DNA of 64,000 nucleotides, from NCBI GenBank assembly GCA_020851635.1, contig JADZCJ010000069.1, positions 1 through 64,000 on the forward strand, written 5' to 3'. Both the position numbers and the translations under genes were made by a program. Below the pieces are notes generated by a model. The model saw only the letters and a program-made list of their open reading frames with translations, ran no database searches and was not told the origin of the DNA. Source of the stretch: Anaerolineae bacterium (lineage in GTDB: Bacteria > Chloroflexota > Anaerolineae > UBA4142 > SHND01). Positions within the stretch are counted from its first letter, which is position 1; the number at the start of each line of letters is the position of its first letter. This document shows, one piece after another, positions 4,454 through 60,787 of this stretch.

Positions 4454-6433
4454 CTATTCCTGAGTAGGGTACCAGACCGTGGCGGTTTGCGAAAAATCAG
4501 CTCCGCCATCGCGGAACATGACCCAGCGCCACAACGCCAACCCATCGAGATTCGCGGGCTGCCAGGTCGTATTGACCCGATACCGCTGTCCCATCCAATC
4601 GCCCGTCGGCGGACTGTGCGCGGTTGTCACAATCGCTTCCGCATTGTCGAGCGCCGACGGTTGGTCGGACCACGCAAAATTTATAAAATCACGCAGGTAC
4701 CAGCGCGCGGTCGCGCCAAGAGCCGGATCAACCGCCAGAAAAAGTATGTGGGGGTCGCCCTGACGCGCCGAGGACATGAATTGCAGATCACGCACCAGAT
4801 CGCGCATCTGTTCGGGCGTTTGATTGGATGCAACCAGCTCTCGCAGCGGTTCCTGCGCTGAAAAATTCAACAGCCATGTCGCCCGCAGCGTCCCCAACCC
4901 GAGGATGATCAAGATGACAACTGCCACCAGCGTTGTCGTGCGCGCGACTCCGACCAGCAAGACGCTCAAACCAATAAAGACGGCGAAAAGCAGCAGCGCG
5001 ATGATCGCCAGCGTCCCCGCAGCCACCATCAGCGACGTTTCGTCCGCATTGCCGCCAAGCGCTCGATACAGCACATTCAGCGCGGGCGAAAAGTTTGTGT
5101 TTTGGGTAAACGTCGCAGCTTGCAGATACACCAGTGCGGCAAGAATCACCAACATGACAAAGACCGGTATTTCGCCCGCCAGCATCGAACTCCACCCGCC
5201 GCTTGCCGCAATATCATCGCGCGCCCGTTCCAGCAAATTGCCAATGAACCACCCTGCCAAAATGCTCAATGGGAGGGCGATCGCAACGACCCCATCGGCT
5301 GCGGCGGTCTCGATGAGGGTGTAGAAAACAAAGGCAAACAAGGTTGTGGCTGTCAGCAGATACAAGACGCTCATGACGCGCGCCGACTCGCCGCGAATGC
5401 TCAAGACAAGCGCCAGCGCCGCCAAGCCAAAAATCAGCGGCACCGGCTCGTACACCAGCAGCGTGTTGAGGGGTGAAATGAAATTGCCCAAGCCGGCGAG
5501 CGCGGCGGTCCAATCGCCCAGCAGGTTGAACGCGGACCCCAACCCGTCGCGGTTCAACAACAAGGTTGTGGCGGTGAGCACATACGTCGCAACAAACAGG
5601 ATCGCCGCTCGCACAAGGGGTCTTGACAGGATGCCCACCGCTTGCGCGGTTTCTGTGGTCGTATCCTCGTTCCCGGATCGTCTTCCGAGCAGGACGGCGA
5701 CGATGAAATAGATGCTCCCGCCGATGAGGACCGTGAACGCGGCGGCATCCGCCGTCAGACTCGATGCGCCGAGAAACGCGGCGAAATATAGCGCACGGAC
5801 ACTTGTCGTGTGACGATATTCATTCAAAAGGAGCAGAGCCGCCAGCGCACCCCCAACCGCCAAGTCCACGCCCGAGAGACTGCGCCCAAAAAACAGAATC
5901 GTGGGTGATATGGCAATCAGGACAGCAGCGACAAACGCGCCCGTCCTGCCAAGGGAATGCCGCGCGAGGAGTGGTAAAAACACCAACAGCGTCCCCAGAG
6001 CTGCGGGCGCCAGGCGCGCCGTCAAATCGAATGCGCCAAACAGGAAAAATACAAACCAGTCAAGCGTTACGAGTAACGGGCTTGAGTATTCGCCGACCGG
6101 CTGCCCATTCAGAAAAGACCATGCCGCCGCCGCGCTTTGCGCTTCAGCGGGTGTCAACGGGCGCGCATCCAGATTCGTCAGGCGCAGGACGAGCGCCAAA
6201 ATTGCCACGAGCACATACGCCGCGCGTTCCAGTGTGATTGATTCGACCACCGAGCGGACCGTCAGCGCATGCGCGGGCACAACCGCACTTTTGTCAAGAG
6301 TTGACGGCGAGACGGTCAGCGGCAAGCCGAGAGTGTCGCCGTTGTTTTGGATCACTGCGACCGGTTCTGCAACAAGCGTGCTTGTAGTCGGCTCGGCAGT
6401 CAGCTGATTTTGTTTACGACGGTTCTTTGGCAT
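4454..6433 (-). CDS. GT-C-type membrane protein, divergent TIGR03663/ArnT-like
   Basis: About 659 residues. The ATG at 6433 (MPKNRRKQ) is preferred over TTG at 6439. A cytoplasmic Pro/Thr/Val-rich N-terminus of about 70 residues precedes roughly 12 membrane segments. The first external loop has LTPAEAQSAAAAW: Glu97 stands where the relatives carry the DE pair, so the usual Asp is replaced. The C-terminal soluble part contains WYLRDFINF and a motif on a modified sugar-like tail closely resembling the next gene's WYLRDY region, so the two neighbours look like paralogues. The predicted role is transfer of a sugar from a lipid carrier outside the membrane, or a structural relative without that activity. 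It is co-directional with 57 bases to the upstream gene and 6 to the downstream one. Confidence 0.75.
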   Translation of the reverse strand: MPKNRRKQNQLTAEPTTSTLVAEPVAVIQNNGDTLGLPLTVSPSTLDKSAVVPAHALTVRSVVESITLERAAYVLVAILALVLRLTNLDARPLTPAEAQSAAAAWSFLNGQPVGEYSSPLLVTLDWFVFFLFGAFDLTARLAPAALGTLLVFLPLLARHSLGRTGAFVAAVLIAISPTILFFGRSLSGVDLAVGGALAALLLLNEYRHTTSVRALYFAAFLGASSLTADAAAFTVLIGGSIYFIVAVLLGRRSGNEDTTTETAQAVGILSRPLVRAAILFVATYVLTATTLLLNRDGLGSAFNLLGDWTAALAGLGNFISPLNTLLVYEPVPLIFGLAALALVLSIRGESARVMSVLYLLTATTLFAFVFYTLIETAAADGVVAIALPLSILAGWFIGNLLERARDDIAASGGWSSMLAGEIPVFVMLVILAALVYLQAATFTQNTNFSPALNVLYRALGGNADETSLMVAAGTLAIIALLLFAVFIGLSVLLVGVARTTTLVAVVILIILGLGTLRATWLLNFSAQEPLRELVASNQTPEQMRDLVRDLQFMSSARQGDPHILFLAVDPALGATARWYLRDFINFAWSDQPSALDNAEAIVTTAHSPPTGDWMGQRYRVNTTWQPANLDGLALWRWVMFRDGGADFSQTATVWYPTQE

Positions 6434-58141: not shown

Positions 58142-58162
58142 TTTCACTCTGACAACCTGCTA
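58142..58162 (-). repeat. second copy of the AGCAGGTTGTC(G/A)GAG 3'-end element
   Basis: On the minus strand the barstar stop codon and the following bases read TAGCAGGTTGTCAGAGTGAAA, matching the arm at 1008-1028 with one change. It again sits in a gap between convergent genes. The inverted partner arm seen at 934-948 is not present here. Confidence 0.55.
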
Positions 58163-58591
58163 CAGAACAGGAAACTCGTCGAGCCCGCGCCCGCGCAAGA
58201 GAACATAATAGGGAACGTTTGCGCCGCTCCAAAATTCGACGGCAGTCCTGAAAAGCTCGAGCGCGACCTCCCAATCCTCCGGCGCGTCGCGTCTGAATCG
58301 TTCGGGCGACTGCCACAGAATGATGAGACCGCCCGGCTGCGCCCAGCTCATGTCTGCGAGCATGTCATTCAACGCATCCCAATTCTTGCCAAAGTAGGCG
58401 GGGAACGACATGGCGGCGGCAATTTTTTCCAAAAAACTCTTTTTGTCGCGTATTTTACTACCGTCCAGATAATACAAATTGAACCCCGCTCGATTTGCCT
58501 CGGTTTTGAGAAACTTGACCGAAGCGCCGGACGCAAAATGATAAATGCCGGGTGGTTGGGTCCCCCGCAAGGCGCGCTGTAATTTACTCAT
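58160..58591 (-). CDS. barstar-family RNase inhibitor
   Basis: 143 residues from ATG 58591 (a TTG six bases earlier is possible). Residues 51-83 (FLEKIAAAMSFPAYFGKNWDAL, then NDMLADMSW) match the barstar core. By alignment with barstar, Asp72 equals Asp35 and Asp76 equals Asp39, both used to bind barnase; Trp38 is replaced by Asn75. No signal peptide, so it is cytoplasmic. The start overlaps the RNase gene by eight bases, so the pair is translated together. It most likely protects the cell from its own RNase before export. Confidence 0.9.
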   Translation of the reverse strand: MSKLQRALRGTQPPGIYHFASGASVKFLKTEANRAGFNLYYLDGSKIRDKKSFLEKIAAAMSFPAYFGKNWDALNDMLADMSWAQPGGLIILWQSPERFRRDAPEDWEVALELFRTAVEFWSGANVPYYVLLRGRGLDEFPVL

Positions 58592-59060
58592 CGTCAATAA
58601 TCACCTTGAAAGACTCGTAGTGGTCGTCAGTGTAATACAATTCGCCCTCTTGACCCGTGATGATGCGCCGCGCGCCACGGTCGTCCGAGCCGGGGGTCTC
58701 GACGGTGTATTCGTGATAATACGCGCTTGATTTGCGGGGCAGGATCCGTTCGCGATTCTGGAATACCCTCCCATCCTGCCGATAGGGAAAGGGTCCGCCC
58801 CGTTCTATCAGCGCGAGTGTGTCGAGCGCCTCTTGAGGCAGCTCGGACAGAGCGATGGTGTCAAACCCATTAATCTGCGCGGGACGCGTTGGGGTGGCGG
58901 GACGGGATGTCGCGGGCGGACGCGTAGCGAGAGACGAAATCCCATCTGCAGCGACAATCGGCAAAGCAGCAGTAGGGCGCGGCTTGACAGAAACCGCTGT
59001 GCCGCACGCAATCAAGCTGGCGGCGAATACAAGCAAAAAGAATAGATGAAAACGTTTCAT
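58584..59060 (-). CDS. RNase Sa/barnase-superfamily ribonuclease lipoprotein
   Basis: 158 residues from ATG 59060. Lipobox SLIAC (Cys19) makes it a lipoprotein; a Pro/Thr/Arg-rich linker runs to about residue 62. The catalytic domain (64-155) closely follows Streptomyces RNase Sa: LPQEALDTLALIERGGPFPY, FQNRE, YYHEYTV, RGARRI and DDHYESF. By comparison with RNase Sa, Glu117 is the base (Glu54), His147 the acid (His85), and Arg128 and Arg132 match Arg65 and Arg69. No disulfide-forming cysteines remain. It should be a guanyl-preferring RNA endonuclease held on the cell surface. Most relatives are freely secreted. Barstar is encoded next. Confidence 0.92.
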   Translation of the reverse strand: MKRFHLFFLLVFAASLIACGTAVSVKPRPTAALPIVAADGISSLATRPPATSRPATPTRPAQINGFDTIALSELPQEALDTLALIERGGPFPYRQDGRVFQNRERILPRKSSAYYHEYTVETPGSDDRGARRIITGQEGELYYTDDHYESFKVIIDDE

Positions 59061-59066
59061 GCTGTA

Positions 59067-60749
59067 TCAACCCGGGACCGTTGAACGCACCGTGAGACCG
59101 GCTGCCACGAGCGCGGCAATGCCCGCGACAGCAAAGAGCGCAACAAGCGCCCACTGCGGTTGAGCGGCGGGTATTTCGGGGACTGTAAACCCATCGAGGT
59201 TTACATCCCCCTCGGCGCGCAGGGTGAGAGTATGCGCGGTGCGCGCAAGACCCACAGCAACGGGGATTCTCACTTGCCATTCCGATTCTATCCCAGCCAA
59301 GTCAACAAAACTTGCGCCCGCCTGATCGCGCGGCAAGCCATTGACAGGGCTGCCGTCGAGAGATAGATATAACCGCCCAAGACCGGGTCCTCGTCGGGCG
59401 AGCAATTCCAGCCCCTGCCCATAAAAACGCAGCGTGCCTCCTGCGTTCCCCTCCGACGCGCGCACATATTGACCACTACTCGCGTTCTCACTGCGGGTCC
59501 ACTTCCATTCCTGGTCGAGCACCAATGCGGGATTCGACTCTTGGTATTCACCCGGCATTGCCACCTGTTCCGCCCGTGCCGCCGCGCTGACCGCCGCATA
59601 AACCGGACGAGGCGTAAAATCCGTATCCACCATCCGAAAATATGCCTCGGGGTTGTTCGGAGGGATATCCCCGACCTGGCGGAAAAACCAGATGCTCACA
59701 ACGCCTGCCCAGGACCAGTTTTCGCGCGCCAACTCGATACCACGCACGGTGTATTCCGCCTGCTGCTGCTCGGTCACGCGTCCCCACACCAGCCGACTGT
59801 CGGGGATTGATTCGGGCGCGGCATTCCATCCGTACTCGAGAATCCAGATTGCTTTGGCAGCATCGCCAAACTTTTCCATGACGGCGCGTTCCAATAGCAC
59901 GCGCTGAAAATTCAGATTGCCGGGATTTGGCGGGTCATCGGGCGAGCTGCCCAATCCAAACGCATTGGCAGAGAGAATGTCAAAGTAATCTTTTGCGCCT
60001 GCCGCATACATTTCCTCGAGGAACTGAAGATCGTTCATGTTGCGGTATTGGGCAGAGCCGGGGGTAAAGGTTTCGCCAAGGGTGATGGCGAGAGGCGCAG
60101 AAAGAATTTGTATGTCCGGATTGACCGCTTTGGTGCGCTCGTAGGCGATCTTGAGCAGCCGCGCATACGAGGCGGGATCAATGGGCGCATCGTTCCACTC
60201 GCGCGCAAGATTCGGCTCGTTCCAAATCTGGAAATAATTGATCCTGTCGCCAAAGTGGCGCGCAACCGCTTGAACAAAGTTACCATAGTCCTCAAAATCG
60301 TCAGGAGGACCGGATGAACCGGTGGCGCTGGCGCGCGAGCGCGCCCATTGCGGCGGACGGTCGAGACGGGCAATCACCTGAATGTTGTTGCTGCGGAACA
60401 AATCCACAATCTCGTCGTATTTGGTCCAGTTGTAAACTCCGGGTTCCGGCTCGATTTCCGCCCAGATAAATTCCTGGCGCGCCCAGCCGATCCCTGCCTC
60501 GCGCGCCATCCGCACGGTCCGTTCGCGTTTCCACGCTTCAACCTCACGTTCGAGAAAAAAGTTGGCGCCAAAGGGATTGACATCGGTATTGGCAATCTCG
60601 CGCCCTGCCCGGAACGGTGGCGGCGGAACTGCAAATACCGTGTCGCGCAAATACAAAAACCCCGCCGCGCTCAAAAGGACGAGACCGATCGAGAGCAAGA
60701 GTGAAAACCGCGCGCGAGGCGACAGACGAGAGACGATACCGAGATTCAT
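59067..60749 (-). CDS. membrane-tethered GH-A clan glycoside hydrolase (cellulase/xylosidase-like)
   Basis: 561 residues from ATG 60749; longer frames are not credible starts. An N-terminal helix (about 14-36) and a C-terminal helix (about 535-555) frame a TIM-barrel with YFQIWNEPN (acid/base Glu178) and IWILEYGWN (nucleophile Glu305), the clan GH-A pair. A beta-sandwich of about 130 residues follows, with GQYVRASEG and LRFYGQGLELLARRGPG. Closest by eye to GH39/GH5-type enzymes; the linkage is unknown. It is six bases from the RNase gene, so the three form a likely operon. Confidence 0.82.
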   Translation of the reverse strand: MNLGIVSRLSPRARFSLLLSIGLVLLSAAGFLYLRDTVFAVPPPPFRAGREIANTDVNPFGANFFLEREVEAWKRERTVRMAREAGIGWARQEFIWAEIEPEPGVYNWTKYDEIVDLFRSNNIQVIARLDRPPQWARSRASATGSSGPPDDFEDYGNFVQAVARHFGDRINYFQIWNEPNLAREWNDAPIDPASYARLLKIAYERTKAVNPDIQILSAPLAITLGETFTPGSAQYRNMNDLQFLEEMYAAGAKDYFDILSANAFGLGSSPDDPPNPGNLNFQRVLLERAVMEKFGDAAKAIWILEYGWNAAPESIPDSRLVWGRVTEQQQAEYTVRGIELARENWSWAGVVSIWFFRQVGDIPPNNPEAYFRMVDTDFTPRPVYAAVSAAARAEQVAMPGEYQESNPALVLDQEWKWTRSENASSGQYVRASEGNAGGTLRFYGQGLELLARRGPGLGRLYLSLDGSPVNGLPRDQAGASFVDLAGIESEWQVRIPVAVGLARTAHTLTLRAEGDVNLDGFTVPEIPAAQPQWALVALFAVAGIAALVAAGLTVRSTVPG

Positions 60750-60787
60750 TCGAAAGGGTTGAGGGTGACAAAGCAAAGGAGAGAGAG

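What the first reader, a model, noticed from the sequence alone, without database searches (positions are those of the whole stretch)
58160..59060. RNase Sa-like lipoprotein with overlapping barstar gene
The RNase keeps all catalytic positions of RNase Sa (Glu117, His147, Arg128, Arg132 by alignment), but it carries a lipobox instead of being freely secreted, and its inhibitor gene overlaps it by eight bases. A surface-tethered RNase with a cytoplasmic immunity protein would suit a contact-dependent or nutrient-scavenging weapon. It follows a surface-anchored glycoside hydrolase in the same operon.
Basis: partly seen in the sequence, partly recalled or inferred. Interest (0 to 1): 0.68.

Follow-up and report, generated by a model that had tools for sequence, protein, structure and literature searches.

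The report
Surface-anchored RNase with coupled barstar inhibitor
This bacterium carries a gene for an RNA-cutting enzyme that should be pinned to the outside of its cell, overlapping a gene for the enzyme's own blocker, and a survey of relatives shows that this tethered-enzyme-plus-blocker pair is a common conserved arrangement in Chloroflexota and actinobacteria, not an oddity of one genome.

Summary
A 158-aa RNase Sa homologue (58584-59060, minus strand) keeps every catalytic position, has the lipobox LIAC19, and overlaps a barstar gene (58160-58591) by eight bases.

Survey: 40 of 40 distinct Chloroflexota relatives have a cysteine-free RNase domain with catalytic Glu and His and a linked, mostly overlapping barstar; 39 show a hydrophobic N-terminus (24 with a lipobox), one is cut off by a contig end. 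Of 139 distinct active relatives overall, barstar is linked for 96 of 98 cysteine-free RNases but only 2 of 41 cysteine-containing ones. Five Burkholderiaceae homologues that lost the catalytic residues have no barstar nearby. The contrast rests on only 2-3 evolutionary changes, and Bacillus barnase/binase do not follow it.

Best reading: a tethered active RNase, with translationally coupled barstar protecting the cytoplasm before export. A contact-dependent weapon is possible but unsupported: no delivery module, no orphan immunity genes, strong purifying selection, fixed synteny in the genus. Surface RNA scavenging fits better, but is inferred.

New variant of a known kind: RNase-barstar pairs were already known to be widespread; the anchored, cysteine-free class was not found described in the held literature.

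The parts
58584..59060 (-). RNase Sa-family guanyl-specific RNase, 158 aa, predicted lipoprotein
   Evidence: PF00545 E 2e-24; RNase Sa3/Sa by phmmer; AF2 model with domain pLDDT about 91-97 matches RNase Sa2/Sa at 0.7 A rmsd
59004..59015 (-). lipobox L16-I17-A18-C19 after a hydrophobic h-region
   Evidence: read directly from the sequence; LspA and Lgt present in the genome
58872..59003 (-). Pro/Thr/Ala-rich spacer (residues 20-63) between the lipid anchor and the RNase domain
   Evidence: low pLDDT and no secondary structure in the model
58596..58871 (-). RNase domain (residues 64-155), no cysteine; E117 (58710-58712), R128 (58677-58679), R132 (58665-58667), H147 (58620-58622)
   Evidence: alignment to RNase Sa; invariant columns in 40 relatives
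58160..58591 (-). barstar, 143 aa, with an N-terminal beta-alpha extension (residues 1-37); D72/D76 correspond to barstar Asp35/Asp39
   Evidence: PF01337 E 2e-29; alignment to barstar; D72 invariant in 43 relatives; AF2 pLDDT 94, best Foldseek match barstar 1bgs
58584..58591 (-). 8-base overlap of the RNase stop and the barstar start
   Evidence: sequence; most linked relatives overlap or touch, commonest -4
59067..60752 (-). glycoside hydrolase (GH42/GH39-like) with N- and C-terminal hydrophobic segments, 6 bases upstream of the RNase
   Evidence: Pfam; order conserved in all four genus members that have the RNase

Best explanation
The pair encodes a guanyl-specific RNase with intact catalytic residues, tethered by a lipid anchor to the outer face of the cell membrane, and a cytoplasmic barstar made from an overlapping start codon on the same message. 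Shown here: family, catalytic residues, lipobox, overlap, and wide conservation of anchor plus linked barstar. Inferred: because the RNase domain has no cysteine it could fold and become active in the reducing cytoplasm before export, so barstar is translated with it to hold it inactive until it passes through Sec; outside it degrades RNA at the cell surface, most likely to retain the released nucleotides and phosphate for the producer rather than to kill neighbours.
For: Active site and fold. Lipobox, with LspA and Lgt in the genome. Linked barstar in 96 of 98 distinct active cysteine-free relatives versus 2 of 41 cysteine-containing ones; the lipobox is concentrated in the cysteine-free class (58 of 98, against 1 of 41) and the rest there mostly have a strong N-terminal hydrophobic segment. 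Seven genomes hold both kinds, and the linked barstar sits with the cysteine-free anchored copy. Five catalytically dead Burkholderiaceae homologues have no barstar within 1.5 kb. Overlap or near-contact of the genes is the rule. Both genes under purifying selection in relatives, omega mostly 0.03-0.3. Literature: cytoplasmic barnase is toxic without barstar (PMC8403359); the secreted Bacillus RNases binase and balifase are induced by phosphate starvation (PMC5021464).
Against: The cysteine/linkage contrast rests on only 2-3 changes on the tree, so it could be inherited by descent. Bacillus barnase is disulphide-free yet freely secreted, and a paper that compares Bacillus RNases calls the operon with the inhibitor unique to balifase. 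Tsukamurella L148 has cysteines, a plain signal and a linked barstar; L024 and L081 are cysteine-free without one. Most genomes searched that have a cysteine-type RNase still hold a barstar somewhere. Nothing here tests RNase activity, localisation or nutrient use, and no phosphate-regulation site was sought.
Confidence: 0.6

Rival explanations
1. Contact-dependent antagonism: the tethered RNase is delivered into neighbouring cells, and barstar is an immunity protein protecting kin.
For: Barnase/barstar domains are known toxin/immunity modules in polymorphic toxin systems (PMC3482391); two surveyed homologues sit on long toxin-like proteins, L154 (RHS-like) and L016.
Against: The window protein is only 158 aa with a low-complexity spacer and no delivery domain; one barstar in the genome, so no orphan immunity genes; purifying, not diversifying, selection; the same RNase at the same place in the genus, no cassette exchange.
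Confidence: 0.15
2. Shared ancestry alone: the anchored cysteine-free RNase with linked barstar is simply the inherited state, and linkage has no functional tie to cysteine content or anchoring.
For: Only 3 changes of the cysteine label and 5 of linkage on the tree; the independent-pairs test cannot reach significance. Bacillus RNases break the rule.
Against: Cysteine-type copies use two different cysteine pairs (70/159 and 60/110) and both lack a linked barstar; cysteine-free anchored paralogues in the same genomes keep it; dead homologues lack it.
Confidence: 0.2
3. Extracellular matrix or RNA-defence role: the surface RNase trims extracellular RNA in biofilm or incoming foreign RNA rather than feeding the cell.
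For: A surface-attached nuclease that affects biofilm is known, Staphylococcus aureus Nuc2 (PMC3994088).
Against: No PADLOC defence match; no direct evidence either way.
Confidence: 0.1

Closest known systems
RNase Sa family (Streptomyces RNase Sa, Sa2, Sa3; PF00545)
   Same: Same domain, fold (best matches at 0.7-1.9 A rmsd to solved structures) and catalytic set.
   Different: RNase Sa is freely secreted and disulphide-bonded (established knowledge); here the domain has no cysteine and is predicted to be lipid-anchored.
Barnase/barstar pairs, including balifase with its operon-linked inhibitor (PMC5021464)
   Same: Guanyl RNase with a dedicated cytoplasmic inhibitor; balifase shares the one-operon arrangement.
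   Different: Those RNases are free exoenzymes; barnase itself matches only weakly in sequence (E about 1e-3).
Simple barnase-barstar gene pairs described as incipient toxin-immunity order (PMC3482391)
   Same: Toxin-then-inhibitor gene order; that paper lists Chloroflexi among the hosts of Tox-Barnase and Imm-Barstar.
   Different: The passages read there do not describe a membrane-anchored, cysteine-free class or the overlap pattern.
Staphylococcus aureus Nuc2 (PMC3994088)
   Same: Works like it: a surface-attached nuclease facing outward.
   Different: A DNase of a different family with an N-terminal signal anchor; no inhibitor partner is described in the abstract. Analogy only.

Membership tests
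RNase Sa family (PF00545) | domain match with conserved catalytic Glu, two Arg, His | tested here: met
RNase Sa family (PF00545) | characteristic fold | tested here: met
   AF2 model and Foldseek
RNase Sa family (PF00545) | guanyl-specific RNase activity | not testable with these tools
   no assay
Barstar (PF01337) | domain match and the Asp35/Asp39 pair of the inhibitory helix | tested here: met
   D72 invariant in 43 relatives, D76 Asp or Glu in the rows shown
Barstar (PF01337) | binds and blocks its RNase | not testable with these tools
   no binding assay or complex prediction on offer
Bacterial lipoprotein | lipobox after an n/h-region, with LspA and Lgt in the genome | tested here: met
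   L-I-A-C19. SignalP not available; lipidation itself untested
Polymorphic toxin system (PMC3482391) | delivery/secretion module and variable C-terminal toxin with exchanged immunity cassettes | tested here: not met
   158-aa protein, single barstar in the genome, syntenic and under purifying selection

The most novel reading that the evidence does not exclude
Membrane-tethered, cysteine-free RNases with a translationally coupled barstar form a widespread class in Chloroflexota and Actinomycetota, in which barstar linkage exists because the enzyme can fold before export; disulphide-bonded exported relatives and catalytically dead ones therefore do without a linked inhibitor.
Probability: 0.4. 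Interest if true: 0.5.

Novelty: new variant of a known kind. Interest (0 to 1): 0.42.

Why it matters
It would turn a textbook toxin-inhibitor pair into a natural experiment on why secreted enzymes need cytoplasmic inhibitors: the same enzyme family with and without disulphides, with and without a membrane anchor, and with dead copies. It also points to surface-tethered RNases as an overlooked trait of Chloroflexota and actinobacteria.

Tried and rejected
PADLOC gave no defence family for either protein; Rfam and tRNA scans of the window were empty. Promoter/terminator scan near chance. Literature searches for lipoprotein guanyl RNases or lipobox with barstar found nothing that describes this class; the held library lacks most subscription journals. 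The general rule 'cysteine-free implies linked barstar' was considered and limited, because Bacillus RNases and a few surveyed loci break it. Fisher's test on the counts is not used as evidence, since the loci are related. A first guess that cysteine-type genomes lack barstar altogether was wrong: 14 of 15 genomes searched have one, only unlinked from that RNase. Four hits with little of the domain aligned (L016, L017, both pieces of L182) were set aside in the counts.

Full report
Observation. The ORF at 58584-59060 (minus strand, 158 aa) matches Pfam PF00545 at E 2e-24 and RNase Sa3 and Sa at E 2e-32 and 1e-30. Aligned to RNase Sa, Glu117, Arg128, Arg132 and His147 fall on the catalytic Glu54, Arg65, Arg69 and His85. 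The N-terminus MKRFHLFFLLVFAASLIAC carries a lipobox with Cys19, followed by about 44 residues rich in Pro, Thr and Ala. Barstar (58160-58591) matches PF01337 at E 2e-29, and its ATG overlaps the RNase stop by eight bases.

Models. AF2 of the RNase gives a confident domain and a disordered N-terminal third; Foldseek's best matches are RNase Sa2, Sa3 and Sa. AF2 of the barstar (mean pLDDT 94) matches barstar (1bgs, TM 0.80 by target) and has an extra N-terminal strand and helix (residues 15-34) before the barstar core. That extension is seen in most Chloroflexota relatives and is short or missing in many Streptomyces ones.

Survey. Sources: 80 loci from genome contigs, picked by similarity to the window RNase; drawn samples of 400 Chloroflexota-phylum, 296 Actinomycetota and 298 same-class genomes searched with PF00545; second loci found through barstar searches; and nine plasmid records. 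Each RNase ORF was scored for catalytic residues, cysteines, lipobox, N-terminal hydrophobicity and a barstar ORF on the same strand. Signal prediction is a home-made scan, not SignalP.

Result after removing duplicates: 144 sequences. Active by residue and cysteine-free: 98, of which 96 have a linked barstar, 58 a lipobox, 37 a hydrophobic segment without lipobox (one of these, L154, is an RHS-like fragment and not a simple anchored protein), and 3 an unclear N-terminus. Active with cysteine: 41, of which 2 have a linked barstar and 1 a lipobox. Dead by residue (catalytic Glu to Ala or Thr, His to Tyr): 5, all Burkholderiaceae, 3 with a lipobox by the scan and none with a linked barstar. The Chloroflexota subset is 40 of 40 cysteine-free, catalytic Glu and His kept, and linked, 24 with a lipobox; one of the others (L177) is cut off by a contig end. 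In the drawn samples alone, 41 of 41 cysteine-free loci are linked and 6 of 6 cysteine ones are not; one of those six, L122, has a barstar gene upstream instead.

Limits of the contrast. On the tree the cysteine label needs only 3 changes and linkage 5; the independent-pairs test has 2 pairs. So the pattern is real but its independent support is thin. Most genomes with a cysteine-type RNase still carry a barstar elsewhere (14 of the 15 genomes searched had one), and in seven of them it sits with a second, cysteine-free anchored RNase. Bacillus barnase has no disulphides yet is freely secreted, and the balifase paper calls an RNase-inhibitor operon unique to B. licheniformis among the bacilli compared. 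The rule is therefore stated for this branch only.

Locus context. In the four genus members with the gene, the glycoside hydrolase lies upstream and the convergent 674-aa membrane protein gene downstream; one other genus member had no PF00545 match. Compared with L018 and L019, the RNase domain is 73-76% identical, barstar 55%, glycoside hydrolase 67-71%, cytochrome b 81-85%. Close relatives show omega of about 0.03-0.2 for the RNase domain and 0.04-0.35 for barstar (the more distant pairs are near saturation at silent sites): both are kept functional, barstar more loosely.

Mechanism. Shown: anchor motif, active site residues, overlap, conservation. Inferred: barstar neutralises RNase that folds before export; the anchored enzyme acts outside. 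Scavenging is favoured over a weapon because nothing in the protein or locus would deliver it into another cell, but no activity, localisation or nutrient test was possible here.

Novelty. RNase-barstar pairs and their toxin-immunity order are known (PMC3482391), and operon-linked balifase is known (PMC5021464). A lipid- or membrane-anchored, cysteine-free class with overlapping barstar was not found in the ten literature searches of the held library.

Noticed in passing
L150-L153, L155 (Caballeronia/Paraburkholderia plasmid records): RNase Sa-like proteins with catalytic Glu and His replaced and no barstar within 1.5 kb; three score as lipoproteins and the other two have Cys-Gly-Cys after a hydrophobic run.
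   Followed up: partly
L014 and L015, barstar ORFs: Barstar appears fused in frame to a second domain that looks glyoxalase/epimerase-like.
   Followed up: no
L179-L181, L183: Subgroup with Arg128 replaced by Val while Glu117, Arg132 and His147 stay.
   Followed up: no
L182: RNase homologue split over two reading frames; could be a sequencing error or a pseudogene.
   Followed up: no
L018 around 5500-5590: About 87 extra bases between RNase and barstar, palindromic-looking, where the window and L019 overlap.
   Followed up: no
L154 (Citrobacter IncC plasmid) and L016: Cysteine-free RNase as the tip of a long toxin-like protein, with linked barstar.
   Followed up: no
L008: An SH3-like stretch between the anchor region and the RNase domain.
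   Followed up: no
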